The notes below the pieces were generated by a model that saw only the letters and a program-made list of their open reading frames with translations, ran no database searches and was not told the DNA's origin. A program made the position numbers and the translations under genes. A DNA stretch of 64,000 bases, from assembly GCF_900683735.1 (NCBI RefSeq), contig NZ_LR215979.1, forward strand, positions 806,001-870,000, given 5' to 3'. This document shows, piece by piece, positions 9,124 through 21,108 of the stretch (position 1 is its first letter; the number at the start of each line of letters is the position of its first letter). Source of the stretch: Fusobacterium ulcerans ATCC 49185. GTDB taxonomy: Bacteria > Fusobacteriota > Fusobacteriia > Fusobacteriales > Fusobacteriaceae.

Positions 9124-9160
9124 AAAAAGAGAATGATTTTAAGAAATCATTCTCTTTTTT
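9124..9160 (+). terminator. Strong intrinsic terminator after tgt
   Basis: A perfect 12-bp stem AGAGAATGATTT/AAATCATTCTCT (9128-9139, 9144-9155) with loop TAAG is flanked by A-run and T-run. The same stem sequence recurs in outer stems at 19968 and 53277. Confidence 0.92.
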
Positions 9161-9271
9161 TGTTTGCTTGATTTTATTTAGAACATTTATGTGTTGATTT
9201 TTTAAAAATAATAAATGCAGCTATTAATAAAACATTTTAATAAATATATTCTTTAAAAAAAATGAACACCA

Positions 9272-9280
9272 TGCTATAAT
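9272..9280 (+). promoter_or_regulatory. Extended -10 promoter element for the surface-protein operon
   Basis: TGCTATAAT (9272-9280) is a perfect extended -10. The region where a -35 would sit (about 9252-9257) is only A/T-rich. The 300-base gap 9113-9412 otherwise contains the tgt terminator and an AT-rich leader of about 125 bases before the ribosome site. Confidence 0.6.
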
Positions 9281-9412: not shown

Positions 9413-9973
9413 ATGAAAAAGATGTTGGGGATATTTCTTTTTCTATCTTGTTTAACAACTACACTTTATTCACAAGAAATAAGTGAAAAAGAGGGAAAAA
9501 AAGTTCTTGAACAGATAAGAAGAGAAATTCAAACAGAGGAAAAAGCAAAACAAAAAGCTATTGAAGATGCTGAAAAAGTAAGAATAGTTGCTGAAAAGGC
9601 TGAAGAAAAAAAAGGAAAGAAAATATTAGAAGACATCAGGAGAGATATGAATGAATCTCTAGAAGAAAAAGTATTTAGAAGTGAGAATACTCCAGAAGTA
9701 AGAATGGCAGCAGCAACTGGAGCTTTTGAAATTGGAAAGGAAAGAATGTCTTTCTTGAAGATGGAAGAAGAGGAAATTATGAAACTTGAAGAAGTTTTGG
9801 GAATGGAATCTGATGAAAACAGAGTATTTTTAAGTCAGAAATTTGATGAAGTATATGATGAGTTTAATTCAAATAATAATGAGATTGAAGTACTTTTACT
9901 TGAAAATGAAAAACTTAATGAATACTTGAGCAGATTAGATAAGATGGAGCAGAAAGTAAAAGTAGGGAATTAA
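9413..9973 (+). CDS. Secreted coiled-coil protein upstream of autotransporter
   Basis: The 186-residue protein has a Sec signal peptide (MKKMLGIFLFLSCLTTTLYS, cleavage near residues 20-22). A highly charged, probably coiled-coil mature part follows. Two similar segments, EGKKVLEQIRREIQTE and KGKKILEDIRRDMNES, suggest an internal duplication about 53 residues apart. I do not recognise a named family. The ATG at 9413 has AAAGGAGG at 9398-9405; the frame opens to a TTG at 9380 that lacks a ribosome site. It ends 12 bases before the giant autotransporter. In F. nucleatum the adhesin RadD is also preceded by small exported proteins in an operon, so an accessory role in display is a reasonable inference. 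Confidence 0.7.
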   Translation: MKKMLGIFLFLSCLTTTLYSQEISEKEGKKVLEQIRREIQTEEKAKQKAIEDAEKVRIVAEKAEEKKGKKILEDIRRDMNESLEEKVFRSENTPEVRMAAATGAFEIGKERMSFLKMEEEEIMKLEEVLGMESDENRVFLSQKFDEVYDEFNSNNNEIEVLLLENEKLNEYLSRLDKMEQKVKVGN

Positions 9974-9985
9974 GGGGGAAGTTTT

Positions 9986-12900
9986 ATGAGAAAGAACGAC
10001 ATTGAAAAATCTTTAAAAAGATTTTTGAAAAGAAAGGTCAGTTATTCTCTTTCACTTTTGATAGCTTTCATGATAACAGGAGGGATATCTTTTAGTGCAG
10101 GAATAACAGCTGAGGAGATACAGGAAACTAAAAGCGATCTTTTAACTAAGATACAAACAGAACGAGAAGAAATAAAAAGAAAAATAGCAGAAAATGAAAG
10201 ACTTATAAAAGAATATAATTCAGATTTTGTGAAACTTGTAAGAAAGGGAGATTTTTATTCAAAACCTCTATTCAACAGTACACAGGTATTTCTTTCATAT
10301 CAATACTTAGATAATGGAAAAATGAAAGACAGAACAGATAAAGAATTTGCAGAAACAATAGATGCAATAAACAAACATTATGGAACAAAGAGCGGAAGGA
10401 GTCTGCTTAGATCTACAGGAAATATTGGGAAAGATAAAATAATGTCTGGAAATGGAGTAGCTGTTGATACTGAAAGTTTCAGTGAAACAATTAACTTGGG
10501 AGCAAATATAAAGCCATTAAATCCTGAATTACCAATAATAGAACCTAATATAAATGTAAGTGCTTCAACACCAACTGTAAGTCTGGGAACATTACCAGGA
10601 ACAGTAATTCCAGGAGTAGTGGCTATCCCTACTGTAACAACTCCTACATTGGTACTGCCAGGAACACCAGCAACAGTAAGTGTAAATGTAAGTACACCAA
10701 GTGCAGTCACAGCAATATCAGTAACAGCACCAGCAGTAACAACACCAAATACACCAGCTGATAAAAATATTACAGTGGCGCCACCAATAGCACCCGGTGG
10801 TTATACACCTCTTATAATTGATACACCTAACAAGCCAGCTACTCCAACTACCCCAACAATTACAGTTTTAACACCTGTAAATATTACTTTCCAAGGAACT
10901 GGTTTTGGACAGGATACACAAGTACAGTTCAATGGAAGTCAGGGAATTGCAGCAATGAACTTTGCTACATATACAACTGGGGGAATAGATATTTCAGCAA
11001 ATGAAACTACAGTACAATGGACTGGAACAATGACAGCCAATGCTTCTGTTCTTCCAGCTAATTCTTCTTATGGATTTGGGAGCTTTAATACTTTCATAAG
11101 TGATGTATTAGACCATGATGTATCTGTAGCTGGAAACTATACAATGAGATCAACAGCTACATCTAAATTTCCAATGTTTGTAAGTTTGAATCCTTATGAA
11201 GTAGGAAAAACTTCGAGTGCAGACAAGACATTTAATTTTCAAGGTACATTGACATTACATGGAGTTTCTTCTGGAAGTAATGGAGGAATATTAGGATTTG
11301 AGCATCAGTTGTTAGCAGGTGGAGGAAGTGGAACTACTGCTGTAGCAAATGTTAATAATGGAACAACAACTTCTATACTAAAGAACTCTGGTACAATTGA
11401 TTTAAATAGTGGATATAATATGATAGGGATAATGATAGATACAGAATATTTTAGTAATAGCCAAAATGCTTTCTTTAACAAAAGACCACAAACAAGAAAT
11501 GATGGGTTAATAAAGATAAGTAGTGGAGCTTATAAAAGTGTAGCGATAGATTTTGGTTATTACCTTGTACAAAATGCTGCTAATTTAAGAGGGCCTAATT
11601 CTGATGTATATCTTGGAAATATAGAAATATCTGGGCAGCAAAGTTATGGATATAGACAAAAATATTATGGAAGTCAATACTATGATATGGTTAAATTTTA
11701 TGGCTCAAATGGAGTTATAAAGGTAATGGGAAGCCAGAATGTAGGAATATCTATTGCTGAAGGAATGTCTAGTGGAGACCCAATTGCTAATGCTAATAGT
11801 ATACAGATACAAGTTGGTGGAAATAAAAATGTAGGATTTCTTAGAAATAATAATACATCTACTACAAACCATACTGCAATGACTTTGGATAGTACAAGGT
11901 TAGGAACAACATTTGATTTTCTTTCTACAGCAACTCAAAGTACACTTATTAGAAGTGATATAGATGAGATTATTTTAGATAAAAATCTTTCTGTAACAGC
12001 TGCTGGAACACAAAATAGTATCATGCAGGCTGGGGGAACAGGTAAAGTTACTTTGAATACAGGGAGAACTATTACTGCAAATATGAATCAATTTTATGCT
12101 TTGACAGCAGGAAATTTTATAGGTTCAACAGGAGCTTCTGCTACAAATAAAGGAATAATAAATGTAGGAGGAACAGAAAGTATTGGCATGGCTATAGCAG
12201 CTGGAAATACAGGAGCCAATAGTGGAAATATAAGTTATATAGGAAATAAAGGAACATCTATATTTAATTTGGGAAATTTTGGGATAACAGGTGGAACAAT
12301 AAGTGCTACTGGTCTTGAAAGCGGAGTACTTTTCAATAAAAGTGGAACTGTGAATGTTTCGGCAGGAACAGTAAATTTAAATGCTTCAAGTGGAGCAACT
12401 GCAATATATAGTTCTGGAGGAACTGTATCTTCATCAATAGGGGCAAATTTAAAAATTTCTGTAGATGATACATCAAATCCAGTGACAAAAGGATTGGCTA
12501 TATATGCAGAGAGTGGAGCAAATGTAACTCTTGGAGCTGCTAAAATAGAAGTAAAAAATGGAGCAGCAGGAGTAGCAGCATTTGGTACAGGAACAAGTAT
12601 CAGCCTGATAGGTTCAGAGCTAAAATATTCAGGAGAGGGATATGCAGCATATTCTGATGGAAATGGAACTATCAACTTGAGTAATGCTAATTTAGAACTT
12701 GCAGGAAAAGCAACAGGAGTAGAGCTTGATCTGCTTTCTCCAAAGATAACTTTAAATAATACAACTATTAAAATGATGTCAAATGATGCTACAGTAGCAA
12801 ATCTAAAAAATGCTACTGGTCTTCTTTCTAATAGTTTAAAGGCTACAGTTGAAACAAATTTAGGAACAGGAGTAACAATAGTAGATGGGGTTTCTGGATT

Positions 12901-15900
12901 AACTACATTTGATAAATATAAGATAGCAACAGTAGATGGTGGAGATTTGACTATTGATGCTAATATGGATAAGTATAGTCAAAATGATGCTACTACTGGA
13001 TATTTCTATTCTAGAAGATTTCTAGGACAAAGACTTGATTTGACAGTTGATACAGGAGTTACAGTAACAAGTTCAACTGATACAGCATATGCTACTTCAT
13101 ACTTTAACAATCAAGTAGTAGGACTTGAAATGAACTCAAGTAAAGCAGCAACAAGTGCAGCAGATGCACAAATAAATCTAAAAACAGGTTCTAAAGTCAT
13201 AGCTGACAGAACAGATGCAGGTGCTGGAGCAATAGGACTATACATGAACTTTGGTAAAGTGGATATTGCAGCAGGCGCAGCAGTAGAGGTAGAAAAAGAA
13301 GCAAATGTTGTAAATGAAAGTGGAGTAGGAGTTTATGCAGTAAATGGAAGCACTGTAACAAATGCTGGAGAGATCAGTGTAGCAGGAAAAAATGCCATAG
13401 GAATATTAGGAATGACATATAGAGAACAGCTTATGGGAACTCCTATTGCAGATGAGTTTGGAAGTGGTGGAATTTTTGCAAATCAAGGAAAAATAGAGAT
13501 TACTAATAATCAGGATATTAAACTTGATGGAACAGGAACTATAGGTATTTATGCATATAATAACAGTGGAGGAGCAAATACAAATTCCAAAGTAACAAAT
13601 GCTGGAACAATAGAGGTAGGAGAATCTACATCTACAAATGCAGCTATAGGAATCTATGGAGATAAATCCTTTATTGCCAATAATGGAAATATTAAAACAG
13701 GAAAAGAAGGAATTGGAATATATGGAATTAAAGGTTCAACTATCAGCAGTCTTGGAACTCTTACATTAGGAGCAGATGGAATTGGAGTAATGGCTGATGG
13801 AACATCAAGTATCACAGCTACATCAGTTACTCTTGCAGCAGGAGCAGGAACAGATGTGAATGGTAAAACTGGTATATTTTACAAGGGAATAGGTTCAGAG
13901 TTACAAAGCATAAATGTAGCTGTAGATGCTTCAGCTTTTGATAAAGGAACAGCTATATTTGTAGAAAAGATGAACCTGTCATCTGGAGGACAGATAGATG
14001 TAGGAAAAGATGGAGTAGGTATCTTCCTGAAAGGGAATACAAGCGCTAATACAGCAACTAACACAGGAACTATTAATCTGACAGGAACAAAAACTGGCGC
14101 TGTAGGTATGTATACAAAGTTAGGGAAAATAATTAATACAGGAACTATCAATGTAAATAATTCTACTCATATAGGAATGTACGCTGAAGGAACTGGCAAC
14201 ACAGTTGCCAATGGAAATATAATAAATCTTAATGTGAATAACTCTACAGGTATCTTTGTTAAAGATGGTGCAAAGACAGAGCTAAACATTGGAAATAATA
14301 TTAATTTCATATCAGGAGTAACAAATAGTCTGGGAGTATTTGCAGATGAAGCTACTGTTGAATTTAAAGATAATATGTCATTTATAAATAGCAATGAAAA
14401 TAAGAACATCTATGTTTATGGGAAAGATGCAGCAGTTGAAATAGATGCAGGTAAAACTGTAACAATAGATGGAATGGGAACTCCAGCAACAGCAGGAAAT
14501 AAAACTGTAGGAATTTATCTTGAAAATGCTGGTACAGGAAGTACATTTACAAGCAATACAACAGGACAGCTTATTGTCCAGAAAGAAGCAGTAGGTATCT
14601 ATTCAAAAGGAAATAATACTTTAAATGTAAATGTAACAGCTGATGGAGAAAAAACTACAGGAGTATTTATTGAGGATGGATCAACTATAACAGGAACTGT
14701 AACTGCCAGAGGCGCATCAGGAGTAGGAGCAGTAGGAGTATATGGAAGTAGAGGAGCTGTAACAATAGGTGCTGTAGGACTAACTCTTAATACAGATACA
14801 GATAAAGGAACAGGAATGTATCTTGCTGATGGCGCTTATGCAACTGGAGGTAAAATCACTGTAAGTAATACAGCTGCAGTTGATAATATAGGAGTATACT
14901 ACAGTAAAGGAACAGCTTCAGGAACTGTAACAAATGGATCTGAAATTGAGCTTGCAGGAAATAAAAGTATAGGAATATATGCAGCAGATGGGATAAATCT
15001 TGTAAATACTAAAAATATAACATCTACAGGATTAAATAATAATATAGCTTCATATGTAGGAGGAAGCTCAACACTGACTTCAAATGGAAATATAATTATG
15101 ACAGGAACAGACAACATAGGTGTATATACAGGAAAAGGAAGTGGAATAAATAATGGAACTATTAACTTAACTGGAGCAGCAGGAACATCCTCAGCAGGAA
15201 TGGTAGCTAAAGCTGATGCAGCATCAGATACAGCTTCAGTAGAAAATAAGAATATAATAACTGTAGGAAATAATCTTGGAATGTATGTAGCAGGTGCTGG
15301 AACAAGTTCAGGAAAGAATACAGGAACAATAACAGCAACAACAGGAACAGGAGTATATGTAGATGGTGGAGGAAACAGCTTTGATGGAACTGGAGGAAGT
15401 ATCACATCAAATGCAGTAGGAATCTATTTAAAAGATACAGATGCTAATAAAATAACTGCTGGTACTTTGAATATAAGTTCAGGAGGAGTAGGAGTATTTG
15501 GTGAGAATGCTAAGATAGATTTTGCAGTAAATGTAGCAGGAACAGGAGCAGTAGGAGTTGCAGCTAAAAATGGTTCGGTAATATCAGGAAATATAACAAC
15601 TGGACAGGATTCTGTTGGAGCATATGTACTGGATAATACAGTTTCATTTAATGGATCTGTAATTACAACTGGTACTAACTCATTAAATACATCAATAGGA
15701 GTACTTCTGGCAAATGGAATAGGAACATATACTATGAACAATGTAACTGTAAATGCTAAAAATGGAGTAGGAATCTATCTGGGAACAGGAGCTAATCTTA
15801 CACACAATGGTACAGTTACTACTGAAAATGGAATAGGTATCTATGTAGCAAATGGAACTACTCTTACAACAGGGACAACTGTTTTGAATGTAAAAAATGG

Positions 15901-18900
15901 TGGAACAGGTGTATATATAGATCAGGGAACAGCTAATCTTGGAACAACAGGAAGCCTTACATTTAACTTCTCATCAGGAGGAGGAATAGGAATATACAAT
16001 AATGGTGGAACAATGAATATTGGAAGCAATATCAGTGTTACAGGATCAGGTTCTCTTGCAGCTACAAAAGATGGAAGCCTTACATCAAGTGGAACATTAA
16101 ATATTGGAACAGGAGCAGTAGGACTTTTAGGAGAATATGGAGCAGCTACAACTACTCCTAAAGTAATAACAAATACAGCTTCAGGAATTATCAATGCTAC
16201 TGGTGGAGGAATAGGACTTGCAGCTATAAAATCAGGAGCAGGGCCAGGAGCTGTAGTGACAATAACAAATGCAGGAACTATCAGCGCATCTGGAAAATCT
16301 ATTGGAGATGACCCATCAATAGGAATATATACAGATACAGCAAATGTAGTAAATACTGGAACTATTAATGTAGGAACAAATGGAATAGGAATATATGCAG
16401 TATTTAATGGAGTAGGTATTACAGTTCAAAATGATGATATAAAGATGAATGGAAGTGATGGAATAGGAGTTTATCTGAAAGATGGAGCAGGTCTTGCATC
16501 AGGAAACAGCATTACAGGAACAGGTTCAAATAATACAGGACTTGTACTTGAAAATACAGCTGTACCAGCTTCAGTAGGAACTATCTCACTTGGAGGAAAC
16601 AGTATTGGAGTAATGGCTACAGGAACAGCTACAACAGGAACAATCAATGGAAATATATCAGTAGGCGCTGGAAATAACTCAATAGGTCTTGTATCAGCAA
16701 ATGGAGCTAATGTAACACTTGGCGCAGGGTCTACAGTTACAACAGGAAATAATGGAATTGGAGTATATGTAAATGGTGCAGCATCAACAGCTGTAATAAA
16801 TGATGTTTCCAAAATAAGTGTAGGGACTGAAGGAGTTTATCTTTATTCAAATGGTGGAAATTTATCATTTGCTGGAAATCTTACTGTAAATGATCAAATA
16901 GGAATAGCTGCCAATGGTGGAACTGTAGCAACACTTGGAGCGACATCAATTACAGTAACAAATGGTGGAATAGGAGCATATATCAAAGGTTCTGTACCAG
17001 CACTGACAGGAACTGCTATTAATCTGCAAAGTGGAACAGCTTCAAAATATTCAATGGGTATCTATTATGATGGTGTAGCTGGAATAGGAACAGCTCCAGT
17101 TATTAATCAGACAGGAAATTATACAATAGGAATGGTATTGAATGGTTCATCAGGTACAGCCAGTGGAGTAAGTATTACAGGACAAAATCAAGTAGGAATT
17201 ATGGCACAGAATGGGTCTGGAATTACTGCTGGTGGAATAGTGTCAGTATCAGGAGATAAAAACATAGGGATTTATGGAGAAAATAGTAATATCATAGCAA
17301 ATTCAGGAATTTCTGTAGGAAATTCTACATATTCAGCTGATAAGAGCAGCTCATCTATAGGAATCTTTATGAAAGGCGGTATATATACAGGAAGTGGAAA
17401 TATTGCTGCAGGAGATAACAGTATAGGGATCTATGGAGATCAGATGGCAGGAGGAAGTATAACTCATCTGGGAGTAGGAAATACTATGACTCTTGGAGAT
17501 AAAGCTATTGGTTTCTATGGAACAGGAACATCTGGAAATATGGAAGCATCATTTACAGGTGCATCAGGAACAACTGGAGGAAACGGGACAATTGCTTTTT
17601 ATGGCAAAGGGATTGATATGAAAGTTACTTCAGATATATCTCTTGGAAATGATACAGCAGTAGGAGTTGTAAGTCATGGAACTGGAGATGTAATATATAA
17701 TGGAGCTATAAGTGTAGGAGCTAAGTCTATTGGTATTTATAAAGTTGATGGAGCAGGAATAATGACAACATCAGCAGCCAGTTGGAATATAGGAAAAGGT
17801 GGATATGGTATTTATGTAAACCAGTCAGGAGCATTGGAAACAGTAGTAAATAATAATGCTGGTATGGTGCTTGATACATCAGCAGTTGGAATTTTCTCTA
17901 ATGGAAGGAATAAAATATATAATTCTGGAAATATAACAGTAGGAGCTACTGATTTAGGAGCATCAGGAGATCATAGTAAAACTGATGAGCATTTAAACTC
18001 TGTTGGAATGTATCTGGCAGGAGGAAGCATTGCTGAAAATACAGGAACAATCACTGTTAATCATGATCACTCAGTAGGGGTTTATGTAACAGGTACAGGA
18101 AGCTACTTTACAAATAAAGGTACTGGAGTATTGAACCTTGATGGCGGCGGAGTAGGAATACTTGTAAAAGATGGAGGAATAGCATTAAATGAAGGAACTA
18201 TTACTCTTGGAACTAATCTGGCAATATGTGGAGCAGAAACTGTAGGAATGGCAGCGTTTAATGGAGGGGCAATTATTAATACAGGGACTATCAATGTAAA
18301 TGCTGGAATTGGAATGCTGGTGGAACATGGAGGGACTCTTAACAATATAGGAGTACTTAATGTAACTGGTGGAGTAGGAATACAAGGAGCAGGAACAGTT
18401 ATCAATAAAGGAACTATCAATGTATCAGGAAGTGGAACGGAATCAAATCTTGGCGGAGCATCTGGAACAGCTAATATTGGAGCCGTAAAAATAGAATCTG
18501 ATGGAACTATTACAATTAATGATCAGTATGTAGCTATTGGAGGAACATTGAATGCAGCAGGAGCTATTGTTGTAAATGGAGCATATGTAGATGCAACAAC
18601 AGGAGTACCTATGTTCAATGCTTCAAATGTAACTGGAGAAGTAAGGCTGCTGTCTAACTTTGCATCTACAGGAAATGGAATTTCATATCTATTCCAAAAC
18701 TTTGTAAATACAGCAGCAGGAACTATATCAGGTTCAAAACTATCTACAAAGACATCGCCATTATTTGTAGCGAAGATAACAACAGATGGACATTTAGCAG
18801 TGGCAAAAAGACCATATGCTGATCTGACAATAGGAGAACAGTTTGATGCTATGGATAAGGGACTTGACAATATACTTAAAAATAGTGGTGGAAGTGGAAG

Positions 18901-19954
18901 AGATGCTGAAATACTAAAAGGTTTAAATGAATATTTAGATGGATTACCATCAGATCAATTTGAAAGAGAAACATCACAAAAACTTTCAGAGTTCAGAGGG
19001 GATATTTATGCAACTATTCAAGGCAGAATGCAGGATATCAATCAGGCTTTTGATAACTCTTTCTATGAACTTGAATCTTCATATAATCTGACTAAAGACA
19101 GCAGTAAATACAGTGTGATCTATACTGATGGAAAATATAGAGATTCTACATTAGGAATAGATGAATATGATTACAAGGTAATGGGACTTCTATATATGAA
19201 AGAAAAAGAAGGAGCAGAGTATGGAAGCAAATATGGATATACAATAGGATTTGCAGGATCAAAGTTTGACTTTGATGATGGTGGATCAAAAGAGGATGTA
19301 TATTCACTAAGAGTAGGAGCACACAGAGTTAAAAATCTAAGTGAGGAACATAAAGTATCATGGCTGTCAAGAATAGAGCTTGGATACAATAGACATATTG
19401 CTAAGAGAAAACTTAACCTTCATGAAACATTTGAAAATAAGGGAGAGTATAATACATACTCTGTAGCACTTGATAACAGACTTACAAAAGTTATCTATAC
19501 AGACTTGTCTAGACAGTTGGATGTATATGCTGATTTAGATTTGGAATATGGAAAAATAGATGACTTTAAAGAAAGCGCAGGAAGCAAAGGCGGACTTGAA
19601 GTACAGATTAAAGATAATGACTACTTAAGCGCACAGGCTGGAGCAGGAGTGAAAGCATCACAAAGAATCTATGCAGGAAATGACATCTCAGTAAAAGTAA
19701 CAGCAGATGTGAAATATGCATATGAATTTGGAGATAACTATGATGGAAACAAAGCAAGACTTAAAAATGGAGAAGAAGGATATTACAGTCTGATAACTCC
19801 AGAAGAAAGAGAAGGAAAACTGAGTGGAAAAGTTGGACTTACAATAGAAAAGGCTAACCACATGGGAGTAACATTTGAAGTGGAGGCAGCAGATGAAAAT
19901 CATAAAAAAGATTCATCAATTAAGTATGGTGTAAGATTTAATTACAAATTCTAA
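9986..19954 (+). CDS. Giant type V autotransporter adhesin (3322 residues)
   Basis: This is a surface protein that exports its own passenger through an outer-membrane barrel. Residues 1-40 are an extended signal (basic start, then SYSLSLLIAFMITGGISFSA). Residues about 40-130 are the charged autotransporter-associated N-terminal region seen in Fusobacterium autotransporters. About 165-300 is a Pro/Thr/Val-rich stretch. About 300-2950 is a long repetitive passenger built of irregular units such as GTINVGxxGIGIYxxNG, consistent with a beta-helix. About 3000-3322 is the barrel, ending GVRFNYKF with a terminal Phe. I noticed a single cysteine (Cys2748). The start has AAGGGGG at 9971-9978. No frameshift is visible. 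Its ligand is unknown. Confidence 0.93.
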   Translation: MRKNDIEKSLKRFLKRKVSYSLSLLIAFMITGGISFSAGITAEEIQETKSDLLTKIQTEREEIKRKIAENERLIKEYNSDFVKLVRKGDFYSKPLFNSTQVFLSYQYLDNGKMKDRTDKEFAETIDAINKHYGTKSGRSLLRSTGNIGKDKIMSGNGVAVDTESFSETINLGANIKPLNPELPIIEPNINVSASTPTVSLGTLPGTVIPGVVAIPTVTTPTLVLPGTPATVSVNVSTPSAVTAISVTAPAVTTPNTPADKNITVAPPIAPGGYTPLIIDTPNKPATPTTPTITVLTPVNITFQGTGFGQDTQVQFNGSQGIAAMNFATYTTGGIDISANETTVQWTGTMTANASVLPANSSYGFGSFNTFISDVLDHDVSVAGNYTMRSTATSKFPMFVSLNPYEVGKTSSADKTFNFQGTLTLHGVSSGSNGGILGFEHQLLAGGGSGTTAVANVNNGTTTSILKNSGTIDLNSGYNMIGIMIDTEYFSNSQNAFFNKRPQTRNDGLIKISSGAYKSVAIDFGYYLVQNAANLRGPNSDVYLGNIEISGQQSYGYRQKYYGSQYYDMVKFYGSNGVIKVMGSQNVGISIAEGMSSGDPIANANSIQIQVGGNKNVGFLRNNNTSTTNHTAMTLDSTRLGTTFDFLSTATQSTLIRSDIDEIILDKNLSVTAAGTQNSIMQAGGTGKVTLNTGRTITANMNQFYALTAGNFIGSTGASATNKGIINVGGTESIGMAIAAGNTGANSGNISYIGNKGTSIFNLGNFGITGGTISATGLESGVLFNKSGTVNVSAGTVNLNASSGATAIYSSGGTVSSSIGANLKISVDDTSNPVTKGLAIYAESGANVTLGAAKIEVKNGAAGVAAFGTGTSISLIGSELKYSGEGYAAYSDGNGTINLSNANLELAGKATGVELDLLSPKITLNNTTIKMMSNDATVANLKNATGLLSNSLKATVETNLGTGVTIVDGVSGLTTFDKYKIATVDGGDLTIDANMDKYSQNDATTGYFYSRRFLGQRLDLTVDTGVTVTSSTDTAYATSYFNNQVVGLEMNSSKAATSAADAQINLKTGSKVIADRTDAGAGAIGLYMNFGKVDIAAGAAVEVEKEANVVNESGVGVYAVNGSTVTNAGEISVAGKNAIGILGMTYREQLMGTPIADEFGSGGIFANQGKIEITNNQDIKLDGTGTIGIYAYNNSGGANTNSKVTNAGTIEVGESTSTNAAIGIYGDKSFIANNGNIKTGKEGIGIYGIKGSTISSLGTLTLGADGIGVMADGTSSITATSVTLAAGAGTDVNGKTGIFYKGIGSELQSINVAVDASAFDKGTAIFVEKMNLSSGGQIDVGKDGVGIFLKGNTSANTATNTGTINLTGTKTGAVGMYTKLGKIINTGTINVNNSTHIGMYAEGTGNTVANGNIINLNVNNSTGIFVKDGAKTELNIGNNINFISGVTNSLGVFADEATVEFKDNMSFINSNENKNIYVYGKDAAVEIDAGKTVTIDGMGTPATAGNKTVGIYLENAGTGSTFTSNTTGQLIVQKEAVGIYSKGNNTLNVNVTADGEKTTGVFIEDGSTITGTVTARGASGVGAVGVYGSRGAVTIGAVGLTLNTDTDKGTGMYLADGAYATGGKITVSNTAAVDNIGVYYSKGTASGTVTNGSEIELAGNKSIGIYAADGINLVNTKNITSTGLNNNIASYVGGSSTLTSNGNIIMTGTDNIGVYTGKGSGINNGTINLTGAAGTSSAGMVAKADAASDTASVENKNIITVGNNLGMYVAGAGTSSGKNTGTITATTGTGVYVDGGGNSFDGTGGSITSNAVGIYLKDTDANKITAGTLNISSGGVGVFGENAKIDFAVNVAGTGAVGVAAKNGSVISGNITTGQDSVGAYVLDNTVSFNGSVITTGTNSLNTSIGVLLANGIGTYTMNNVTVNAKNGVGIYLGTGANLTHNGTVTTENGIGIYVANGTTLTTGTTVLNVKNGGTGVYIDQGTANLGTTGSLTFNFSSGGGIGIYNNGGTMNIGSNISVTGSGSLAATKDGSLTSSGTLNIGTGAVGLLGEYGAATTTPKVITNTASGIINATGGGIGLAAIKSGAGPGAVVTITNAGTISASGKSIGDDPSIGIYTDTANVVNTGTINVGTNGIGIYAVFNGVGITVQNDDIKMNGSDGIGVYLKDGAGLASGNSITGTGSNNTGLVLENTAVPASVGTISLGGNSIGVMATGTATTGTINGNISVGAGNNSIGLVSANGANVTLGAGSTVTTGNNGIGVYVNGAASTAVINDVSKISVGTEGVYLYSNGGNLSFAGNLTVNDQIGIAANGGTVATLGATSITVTNGGIGAYIKGSVPALTGTAINLQSGTASKYSMGIYYDGVAGIGTAPVINQTGNYTIGMVLNGSSGTASGVSITGQNQVGIMAQNGSGITAGGIVSVSGDKNIGIYGENSNIIANSGISVGNSTYSADKSSSSIGIFMKGGIYTGSGNIAAGDNSIGIYGDQMAGGSITHLGVGNTMTLGDKAIGFYGTGTSGNMEASFTGASGTTGGNGTIAFYGKGIDMKVTSDISLGNDTAVGVVSHGTGDVIYNGAISVGAKSIGIYKVDGAGIMTTSAASWNIGKGGYGIYVNQSGALETVVNNNAGMVLDTSAVGIFSNGRNKIYNSGNITVGATDLGASGDHSKTDEHLNSVGMYLAGGSIAENTGTITVNHDHSVGVYVTGTGSYFTNKGTGVLNLDGGGVGILVKDGGIALNEGTITLGTNLAICGAETVGMAAFNGGAIINTGTINVNAGIGMLVEHGGTLNNIGVLNVTGGVGIQGAGTVINKGTINVSGSGTESNLGGASGTANIGAVKIESDGTITINDQYVAIGGTLNAAGAIVVNGAYVDATTGVPMFNASNVTGEVRLLSNFASTGNGISYLFQNFVNTAAGTISGSKLSTKTSPLFVAKITTDGHLAVAKRPYADLTIGEQFDAMDKGLDNILKNSGGSGRDAEILKGLNEYLDGLPSDQFERETSQKLSEFRGDIYATIQGRMQDINQAFDNSFYELESSYNLTKDSSKYSVIYTDGKYRDSTLGIDEYDYKVMGLLYMKEKEGAEYGSKYGYTIGFAGSKFDFDDGGSKEDVYSLRVGAHRVKNLSEEHKVSWLSRIELGYNRHIAKRKLNLHETFENKGEYNTYSVALDNRLTKVIYTDLSRQLDVYADLDLEYGKIDDFKESAGSKGGLEVQIKDNDYLSAQAGAGVKASQRIYAGNDISVKVTADVKYAYEFGDNYDGNKARLKNGEEGYYSLITPEEREGKLSGKVGLTIEKANHMGVTFEVEAADENHKKDSSIKYGVRFNYKF

Positions 19955-19967
19955 TTAATTAAATGAT

Positions 19968-20017
19968 AGAGAATGGCTGAAGAAATAGATTAAAATTATA
20001 TTTTAAAGTCATTCTCT
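19968..20017 (+). promoter_or_regulatory. Nested hairpin between autotransporter and FadA-like gene, without T-run
   Basis: The outer stem AGAGAATGGCT/AGTCATTCTCT (19968-19978, 20007-20017; one G-U) encloses an 11-base purine-rich 5' bulge and an inner 7-bp stem TTAAAAT/ATTTTAA (19990-19996, 20000-20006). No T-run follows (TACATAAAAC), so it is more likely an mRNA processing, stability or attenuation element than a full terminator. Confidence 0.6.
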
Positions 20018-20049
20018 TACATAAAACAAAAAAGGGGGATGAAAACAGT

Positions 20050-20412
20050 ATGAAAAAAATATTATTAGGGTGTCTATTAGTGGTATCTGTAACAGCTTTT
20101 GCAGCAACAGATGTTATGGTAACACTTGAGCAGCTTGAACAAAATTTTCAACAGTTGGAAGCTGAAGAAAGAGCTATGTATGACCAAAGGAAAGCAGAGG
20201 CAGAAACAGCTGAAAAAGTACTAGCAGAGCAAAAAGCAACATACCAACAAATAATAGCTCAGGAAAGACGTATAGCAGATGTAAAAGAATTTAGATATTA
20301 TAAAGGACAGTATAATCAGCTTGCAAAAAAATATTCTGATGCAAAAAGAACCTTAGAAGATGAAATGAAAAAACAGGAAGAAATAATTTATATGTTTGAA
20401 ATAATGAAATAG
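20050..20412 (+). CDS. FadA-family adhesin-like secreted coiled-coil protein
   Basis: The 120-residue protein resembles the F. nucleatum adhesin FadA. It has the signal peptide MKKILLGCLLVVSVTAFAA (cleavage after AFA), a long alpha-helical, heptad-like mature chain, and the conserved C-terminal pattern FRYYKGQYNQLAKKYSDA followed by EDEMKKQEEII. The mature length (about 101 residues) fits FadA, which forms a helical hairpin that assembles into filaments on the cell surface. A GGGGG ribosome site (20034-20038) precedes the ATG. It sits 95 bases behind the giant autotransporter and ends at a terminator, so the three surface genes probably form one module. The FadA family call is recognised from sequence memory; binding partners are not predictable. 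Confidence 0.82.
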   Translation: MKKILLGCLLVVSVTAFAATDVMVTLEQLEQNFQQLEAEERAMYDQRKAEAETAEKVLAEQKATYQQIIAQERRIADVKEFRYYKGQYNQLAKKYSDAKRTLEDEMKKQEEIIYMFEIMK

Positions 20413-20426
20413 TCAAATATTAAAAG

Positions 20427-20468
20427 AAACTGATCTTTAGATGAAATGTCTTCAGATCAGTTTTTTTA
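20427..20468. terminator. Convergent terminator between FadA-like gene and GntR-type regulator
   Basis: A perfect 10-bp stem AAACTGATCT/AGATCAGTTT (20427-20436, 20454-20463) is followed by a T-run on the + strand; the minus strand also has a T-rich exit. Confidence 0.85.
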
Positions 20469-20469
20469 T

Positions 20470-21108
20470 TTAGCTTTGAATAGCACTAGTAAAAAAATTT
20501 TTAACTCTGTCATAAGATTGTTCATCTCCTATGAAATAAAGGATATCTCCTTCTTGAAAAACAGTTTGCGGTCCTGGTGAAAGAATAGTTTTTTCACCAT
20601 GCTTAATAGCAAATATAGTAGCTCCAGTATGATTCCAAAACATTACTTCAGCACTTGTTTTTCCTATAAAATTCATACTGGGAGTAATACGTATAGCAAA
20701 AGGTGTAAAAGGATTTACAGCTTCAAATTTATCTGTGATTTCTAAAAGTTTTGTTATACTGTTTAGAAGTTTTTCATTTTCTTTTTTCTGCCTTTTTACC
20801 CAGTCATGAATATCTTTTTTTATGCTATCAATAGTTTGGCTTTCTCCATATTGTTCCATATATCTGATAGCATTTTCAATAGATTTTATTTCTATTCCAC
20901 TTCCTTTAGAAATATTCAATATGTCAAATTCTTTCAAAATATATACAGATTTACGAATAGTTTCTGGGGAAACTCTATATTCAGTAGCAAGAGTAGATCT
21001 TCCAGAAAGTTTTTCGCCAAGACTATATTTTCCATTTATTATTTTTTTTGCAATATCGATTGCAATTTTCTGATAGATAGGAACTTCATCGATGATCTCA
21101 TTTTTCAT
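20470..21108 (-). CDS. GntR-type HTH regulator with RCK_C (TrkA-C) domain, BusR-like
   Basis: The 212-residue protein has an N-terminal winged helix of GntR type (about 8-75; KLSGRSTLATEYRVSPETIR is the recognition region). A helical linker spans about 80-125, and a C-terminal RCK_C domain about 128-207 (TGATIFAIKHGEKTILSPGP, FQEGDILYFIGDE). This is the layout of BusR, the streptococcal/lactococcal repressor of betaine uptake that binds cyclic di-AMP through RCK_C. The same ligand and an osmotic or ion-homeostasis target are inferred, not shown. No transporter gene is adjacent. The gene stands alone, between terminators. Confidence 0.82.
   Translation of the reverse strand: MKNEIIDEVPIYQKIAIDIAKKIINGKYSLGEKLSGRSTLATEYRVSPETIRKSVYILKEFDILNISKGSGIEIKSIENAIRYMEQYGESQTIDSIKKDIHDWVKRQKKENEKLLNSITKLLEITDKFEAVNPFTPFAIRITPSMNFIGKTSAEVMFWNHTGATIFAIKHGEKTILSPGPQTVFQEGDILYFIGDEQSYDRVKNFFTSAIQS

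What the first reader, a model, noticed from the sequence alone, without database searches (positions are those of the whole stretch)
9413..20412. Three-gene surface module: coiled-coil protein, 3322-residue autotransporter, FadA-like adhesin
Two small exported coiled-coil proteins of different type bracket a giant autotransporter in one apparent transcription unit, with one promoter in front and a terminator behind. FadA-type proteins assemble on the cell surface, so the three could form one adhesive assembly or assist display of the passenger.
Basis: partly seen in the sequence, partly recalled or inferred. Interest (0 to 1): 0.6.

Follow-up and report, generated by a model that had tools for sequence, protein, structure and literature searches.

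The report
Multi-copy adhesin cassette with swappable heads
The three genes are real and belong to a family of about a dozen copies per genome in gut Fusobacterium species: each makes a giant surface adhesin with a variable binding tip on a shared body, almost always preceded by the same small helper-like gene, and at this locus copying between paralogs keeps the body uniform while the tip stays different.

Summary
A 186-aa exported helical protein (CC, 9413-9973), a 3322-aa type Va autotransporter (AT, 9986-19954) and a FadA-family protein (20050-20412) lie on one strand, with a conserved promoter in front and a terminator-like hairpin behind. It is not a unique three-gene assembly. The core is a CC-AT pair: 42 of 43 CC copies in four related genomes sit -4 to 21 nt before an AT. 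FadA usually follows two extra genes, absent here and in two orthologous loci of other species. AT is a relative of RadD and Fap2 but falls below RadD's equivalog cut-off, and the gene order differs from the radD operon. CC matches no named family. The same two loci show the same pattern in another species (body 586 versus 5 informative sites, head 13 versus 164). This is concerted evolution on a shared chassis with locus-specific heads. CC co-varies with AT's N-terminus and barrel, not its passenger, so an export/display role is the best guess, unproven. One joint adhesive assembly has little support.

The parts
9124..9159 (.). bidirectional terminator-like hairpin separating the unit from the upstream tgt gene
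   Evidence: 16-bp stem, T-run; upstream gene is queuine tRNA-ribosyltransferase
9252..9280 (+). promoter: -35-like TTTAAA, extended -10 TGCTATAAT
   Evidence: 10/12 consensus match; block conserved in orthologous loci L145 and L133; an extended -10 occurs about 160-230 nt before CC in about 20 of 33 modules
9413..9973 (+). CC: 186-aa exported all-helical protein, no named family; variable KE-rich N-terminal helix plus conserved C-terminal domain (ESLEEKVFRSxN...)
   Evidence: AlphaFold2 pLDDT 87.8, pTM 0.52; 42/43 copies directly upstream of an AT
9986..19954 (+). AT: 3322-aa type Va autotransporter, relative of RadD and Fap2
   Evidence: NF033175 met; NF049908 RadD 1357 bits, below cut-off 3500; PF03797; Fap2 ectodomain 9qe7 44 bits
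10001..10345 (+). AT N-terminal domain (long signal region and coiled-coil stretch), conserved between paralogs (79%)
10630..12365 (+). AT variable head (about aa 215-793), predicted beta-helical tip, locus-specific
   Evidence: identity profile; DNA profile and site patterns; model of aa 285-915, aligned end to end with Fap2 9qe7
12366..19954 (+). AT body and barrel: gene-conversion tract shared with the paralog at genome position 1163807 (97.6% over 7.6 kb)
19118..19882 (+). AT beta-barrel (PF03797)
19968..20017 (+). intercistronic hairpin AGAGAATGGCT...AGTCATTCTCT, no U-run
   Evidence: conserved in both orthologs; 30 of 32 modules have a stem of 10 or more pairs after the AT stop, 2 of these with a T-rich tail
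20050..20412 (+). FadA-family protein, 120 aa, signal-like N-terminus, helical hairpin family
   Evidence: PF09403; 3etw alignment; 96% and 90% aa identity to the orthologs
20427..20467 (.). terminator-like hairpin with T-run, shared with the convergent GntR/TrkA-C gene at 20470-21108
   Evidence: neighbour annotation

Best explanation
This is one copy of a multi-copy adhesin cassette of gut Fusobacterium. Shown: the order CC, AT, hairpin, FadA is conserved in three species together with the promoter block; CC-AT is the near-invariant core; AT is a type Va autotransporter of the RadD/Fap2 kind whose head (about aa 215-793) is highly variable while its N-terminus and barrel are conserved; the body and barrel at this locus have been homogenised with a distant paralog within each of two genomes, while the heads stay locus-specific. 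Inferred: gene conversion maintains a working export and rod chassis and leaves the binding tip free to diversify, giving a repertoire of adhesins. CC is exported to the periplasm and most likely serves its AT during translocation or outer-membrane insertion, by contact with the AT N-terminus or barrel. FadA is a co-transcribed but separate exported adhesin, set at its own level by the intercistronic hairpin.
For: Multi-copy: 13 CC copies, 15 AT N-terminal domains over cut-off and 19 FadA matches in the genome. CC-AT spacing -4 to 21 nt in 42 of 43 copies; the 43rd has lost its AT. Same three-gene order and neighbour in L133 and L145. AT identity profile: N-terminus 79%, head 23-35%, barrel about 85%. 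Concerted evolution: body sites 586 by species versus 5 by locus, head 13 versus 164, flanks orthologous by locus; body dS 0.04 within the genome versus 0.23 between species. Nearest relative in the same genome: N-terminus 22/33, barrel 22/33, head 4/33, expected about 9.5. CC distance tracks the AT N-terminus (partial 0.63) and barrel (0.36), not body or head. The head model aligns from end to end with the membrane-distal part of Fap2 (Z 22.6, 540 residues). AT and FadA at two loci are co-induced in Fv113-g1 (PMC5720691).
Against: CC-AT covariation could come from linkage and genome-wide homogenisation rather than contact. CC has no significant fold match to a known chaperone and no sequence homology to one. 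The Fap2 alignment has a large rmsd (24 A over a kinked rod) and other beta-helix proteins score similarly over part of the model, so tip equivalence is suggestive only. In F. nucleatum the small radD-operon proteins RapA and RapB are dispensable for coaggregation. No transcript or protein data exist for this locus. Across all 33 modules, bodies taken whole do not show a same-genome excess (11/33), so body conversion is shown for this locus pair and a few others, not for every copy. The intercistronic hairpin's effect on FadA level is untested.
Confidence: 0.6

Rival explanations
1. One adhesive assembly: CC and FadA bind AT on the cell surface and form a joint structure.
For: Conserved order in three species; FadA divergence tracks AT N-terminus and head (0.61 and 0.46); co-induction of AT and FadA in Fv113-g1 (PMC5720691).
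Against: Many CC-AT modules have no FadA, including the paralog with a nearly identical AT body. CC covaries with parts of AT that stay in or near the membrane, not with the exposed passenger. RapA and RapB loss had no significant coaggregation effect in F. nucleatum (PMC7023056).
Confidence: 0.12
2. CC is a regulator of AT expression, like FAD-I, whose loss raises radD transcript levels.
For: Same position, directly upstream of AT, as fad-I before radD; FAD-I loss raises radD transcripts about 3.5 to 6-fold (PMC7023056).
Against: No demonstrable homology between CC and FAD-I-like or RapB-like proteins from radD-type operons once signal peptides are removed; CC is exported and all-helical, with no DNA-binding family found.
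Confidence: 0.15
3. The cassette is only a linkage group: the small genes are independent surface proteins carried along by duplication.
For: Cassettes are duplicated, plasmid-borne and recombining.
Against: CC stays within -4 to 21 nt of AT in 42 of 43 copies despite extensive rearrangement; strong purifying selection on CC.
Confidence: 0.2
4. The near-identity of AT bodies is an assembly artefact or a single recent duplication, not recurrent gene conversion.
For: Long repeats can be collapsed or mis-polished in assemblies.
Against: The same locus pair shows it independently in two separately assembled genomes, with species-specific differences at 586 sites, heads and flanks orthologous by locus.
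Confidence: 0.07

Closest known systems
radD operon (rapA/fadA2 - rapB - fad-I - radD) of Fusobacterium nucleatum
   Same: Giant type Va adhesin co-encoded with a FadA-family protein and small exported proteins (PMC7023056)
   Different: FadA is downstream instead of upstream; one small protein (CC) instead of two, without demonstrable homology to them; AT is below the RadD equivalog cut-off; about 13 copies per genome, where radD is reported as single-copy in type strains
FadA paralogs adjacent to T5SS in F. varium Fv113-g1 (PMC5720691, Fig 5)
   Different: The paper reports FadA next to autotransporters and co-induction; the passages read here do not mention CC as the constant partner, and the plasmid record calls CC 'hypothetical protein'; concerted evolution and head swapping are not in the passages read
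Fap2 (PDB 9qe7)
   Same: Beta-helical rod with a membrane-distal head; sequence match over the beta-helix; structural alignment over the whole head model
   Different: Head sequence not detectably related; the fap2 locus itself was not examined for a CC gene
Recombination-derived mosaicism of F. nucleatum type Va adhesins (PMC10995627)
   Same: Intragenic recombination shapes fap2, radD and cmpA
   Different: Described between strains and subspecies; here between paralogous loci inside one genome, with a body/head contrast

Membership tests
Type Va autotransporter | C-terminal Autotransporter beta-domain PF03797 | tested here: met
   76.3 bits, cut-off 26
Fusobacterial autotransporter N-terminal subfamily | NF033175 over cut-off | tested here: met
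   110.9 bits, cut-off 55
RadD equivalog | NF049908 at 3500 bits or more | tested here: not met
   1357 bits; only G037 has matches over the cut-off among 61 family genomes
radD operon | order FadA2 (rapA) - rapB - fad-I - radD | tested here: not met
   order is CC - AT - FadA
radD operon | small gene homologous to rapB or fad-I | tested here: inconclusive
FadA | PF09403 over gathering score | tested here: met
   60.8 bits, cut-off 28.5
FadA | surface filament formation and host-cell binding | not testable with these tools
   needs experiment
Fap2-like beta-helix rod with distal head | head structurally equivalent to the Fap2 distal region | tested here: inconclusive
   Z 22.6, 540 residues, rmsd 24; Foldseek E 0.34

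The most novel reading that the evidence does not exclude
A dedicated adhesin-diversification system: paralogous loci share one exchangeable export and rod chassis (CC, AT N-terminus, body, barrel) kept uniform by gene conversion, while locus-specific heads are protected from conversion and can move between chassis, including to plasmids; CC is an undescribed dedicated accessory protein of type Va secretion in Fusobacteria.
Probability: 0.3. Interest if true: 0.72.

Novelty: new variant of a known kind. Interest (0 to 1): 0.5.

Why it matters
Giant autotransporters of Fusobacterium (RadD, Fap2) are major adhesins, yet how a genome keeps a dozen 10-kb copies functional while varying what they may bind is open. 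Concerted evolution of the body with a separate head gives a concrete, testable answer. A constant small partner gene points to a possible accessory factor for classical autotransporters, usually regarded as largely self-sufficient beyond the general export machinery (own knowledge, not tested here).

Tried and rejected
Pfam and NCBIfam gave no family for CC, and Pfam none for the ~142-aa protein A2 or the RGRPLGSG proteins. An apparent CC-RapB homology (95.7% probability) fell to 30% once signal peptides were removed and is not claimed. A SurA-like origin of A2 is only suggestive (12% probability). Foldseek and VIA-align gave no convincing fold for CC. No Rfam family in the region. A whole-protein Pfam scan of AT missed the barrel; scanning the C-terminal third found it. 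Reading the AT-FadA hairpin as a plain terminator was set aside because it has no U-run and 30 of 32 modules keep such a stem.

Full report
What is there. Three ORFs lie on the plus strand at the stated place: CC (ATG 9413, 186 aa), AT (9986-19954, 3322 aa) and a FadA-family gene (20050-20412, 120 aa). CC follows a good ribosome-binding site; the AT ribosome-binding site overlaps the CC stop codon, which suggests translational coupling. The upstream neighbours are a RelA/SpoT gene and tgt, closed by a bidirectional terminator-like hairpin at 9124-9159; the downstream neighbour is a convergent GntR/TrkA-C gene. AT carries the fusobacterial autotransporter N-terminal domain and a C-terminal beta-barrel. 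FadA membership is clear. CC has a signal-like N-terminus with a conserved mature start (QE[IV]SEKEG) and matches no named family.

The unit. Comparison with two orthologous loci (L145 in G025, L133 in G027) shows the same three genes, the same convergent neighbour and a conserved block around an extended -10 promoter at 9252-9280; in the window a terminator-like hairpin follows FadA at 20427-20467. Between AT and FadA a hairpin with conserved arms and a variable loop is kept in all three. It has no U-run. Across 32 distinct modules, 30 have a stem of 10 or more pairs in the 95 nt after the AT stop, only two of these with a T-rich tail, and the median folding z-score is -4.5. I read it as an intercistronic stem-loop that protects the 3' end of the long AT message and sets a different level for the downstream genes; this is inference.

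The family. The genome (one contig, 3.84 Mb) holds 13 CC copies, 15 AT N-terminal domains over cut-off and 19 FadA matches. In four genomes of the genus (G000, G025, G026, G027) 42 of 43 CC copies lie -4 to 21 nt before an AT; the remaining one (genome 2927812) has kept CC and the genes behind but lost the AT. In this genome seven of eight FadA genes of the 120-aa type lie within about 1 kb behind an AT, usually after one or two more small genes: an RGRPLGSG protein and a ~142-aa protein called A2 here. For the other genomes the loci were fetched around CC, so their FadA counts are biased. The window locus and its orthologs lack the two extra genes. Two CC-AT modules sit on plasmids of F. varium Fv113-g1; the depositors call CC 'hypothetical protein' there. 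G027 is identified as Fv113-g1 by its contig lengths and plasmid accessions. CC is found in 9 of the 61 Fusobacteriaceae genomes held. In a genome with a RadD above the equivalog cut-off (G037), the order is FadA, small proteins, RadD, as in the published radD operon.

Head and chassis. Aligning 33 ATs, mean pairwise identity is 79% in the first 150 residues, 23-35% between about 300 and 900, 44-69% along the rod and about 85% in the barrel. At DNA level the window AT and its paralog at genome position 1163807 share 7.6 kb at 97.6% identity, long stretches at 100%, from about AT residue 794 to the stop codon; the heads and both flanks differ. The same two loci in G025 (L145, L144) show the same. 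In a four-sequence test the body has 586 sites grouping the loci by species and 5 grouping them by locus; the head (1500-3000 nt from the CC start) has 13 and 164; flanks are orthologous by locus. Synonymous divergence of the body is 0.04 within the genome and 0.23 between the species, against 0.40-0.60 for CC. This is concerted evolution, most simply gene conversion between distant loci, with the head left out. Across all modules the nearest relative lies in the same genome for the N-terminus in 22 of 33 and for the barrel in 22 of 33, but for the head in only 4 of 33 (about 9.5 expected). Several heads sit on different bodies, for example 89% head identity with 72% body identity between a chromosomal and a plasmid copy in G027. 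Body conversion as clear as at this locus was not seen for every copy (body 11 of 33).

The head model (aa 285-915, pLDDT 82.9, pTM 0.87) is mostly beta-helix with an irregular outer part. In the VIA comparison Fap2 9qe7 is aligned from the first to the last residue of the model (Z 22.6, 540 residues, but rmsd 24 A), while most other beta-helix proteins listed match only parts of it; Foldseek alone is not significant. The docking region given for the Fap2 matchstick is residues 339-910 (PMC12397386), so a binding tip is likely but not shown.

What CC does. CC is predicted to be helical throughout with a conserved C-terminal helical domain. Its divergence follows that of the AT N-terminus (partial correlation 0.63) and barrel (0.36), not the body or head. 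The parts it follows are those that pass through or stay in the periplasm and outer membrane. I therefore favour a role in export or display. Linkage and homogenisation could produce part of this signal, and no known chaperone fold was found. FAD-I offers a regulatory alternative by position only (PMC7023056). A single adhesive assembly is the least supported of the functional readings, since many CC-AT modules, intact as far as sequence shows, have no neighbouring FadA.

Known and new. FadA genes next to autotransporters in F. varium, and their joint induction, were reported (PMC5720691). Mosaicism of type Va adhesin genes between F. nucleatum strains was reported (PMC10995627). A search of the held library for Fusobacterium, autotransporter and gene conversion gave one paper, on receptor domain shuffling in hosts. 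Not found in the papers read are CC as the constant partner, the conserved hairpin, and the within-genome homogenisation of chassis against heads.

Noticed in passing
L054:13420-14441 and the same genes in other modules: Two extra genes between AT and FadA in most modules: an RGRPLGSG protein that looks like a small DNA-binding (ribbon-helix-helix-like) protein, and A2 (~142 aa), which has lipoprotein homologs upstream of FadA pairs elsewhere.
   Followed up: partly
L125, L127, L141, L151, L055, L135 (start of the RGRPLGSG gene): Its Shine-Dalgarno region CTAAAGG(A/T)GG is predicted to pair with its own codons for RPLG (CCCTTTAG or GACCTTTAG) in the copies looked at, a possible translational control element.
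   Followed up: no
L158:4107-5999 (G037): The operon of a RadD above the equivalog cut-off includes a PPIC-type peptidyl-prolyl isomerase gene (PF13145) between small lipoprotein genes.
   Followed up: partly
L065:2813-4121 (genome 2927812): A module that has kept CC, the RGRPLGSG gene and A2 but lost its autotransporter.
   Followed up: partly
L138 and L140 (G027 C3 and C2; plasmids AP017970, AP017969): CC-AT modules on mobilizable plasmids; the head of one is 89% identical to that of a chromosomal copy.
   Followed up: partly
L062:2953-13117: An AT copy split into two frames (1475 and 1903 aa), apparently inactive.
   Followed up: no
L054, L057, L125, L127, L142, L144 upstream of CC: Other modules carry a different shared promoter element (TTATTTGTATGTAAAAA ... 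TATAAT ... TGTAAAC), unlike the window locus, suggesting separate regulation of cassette classes.
   Followed up: no
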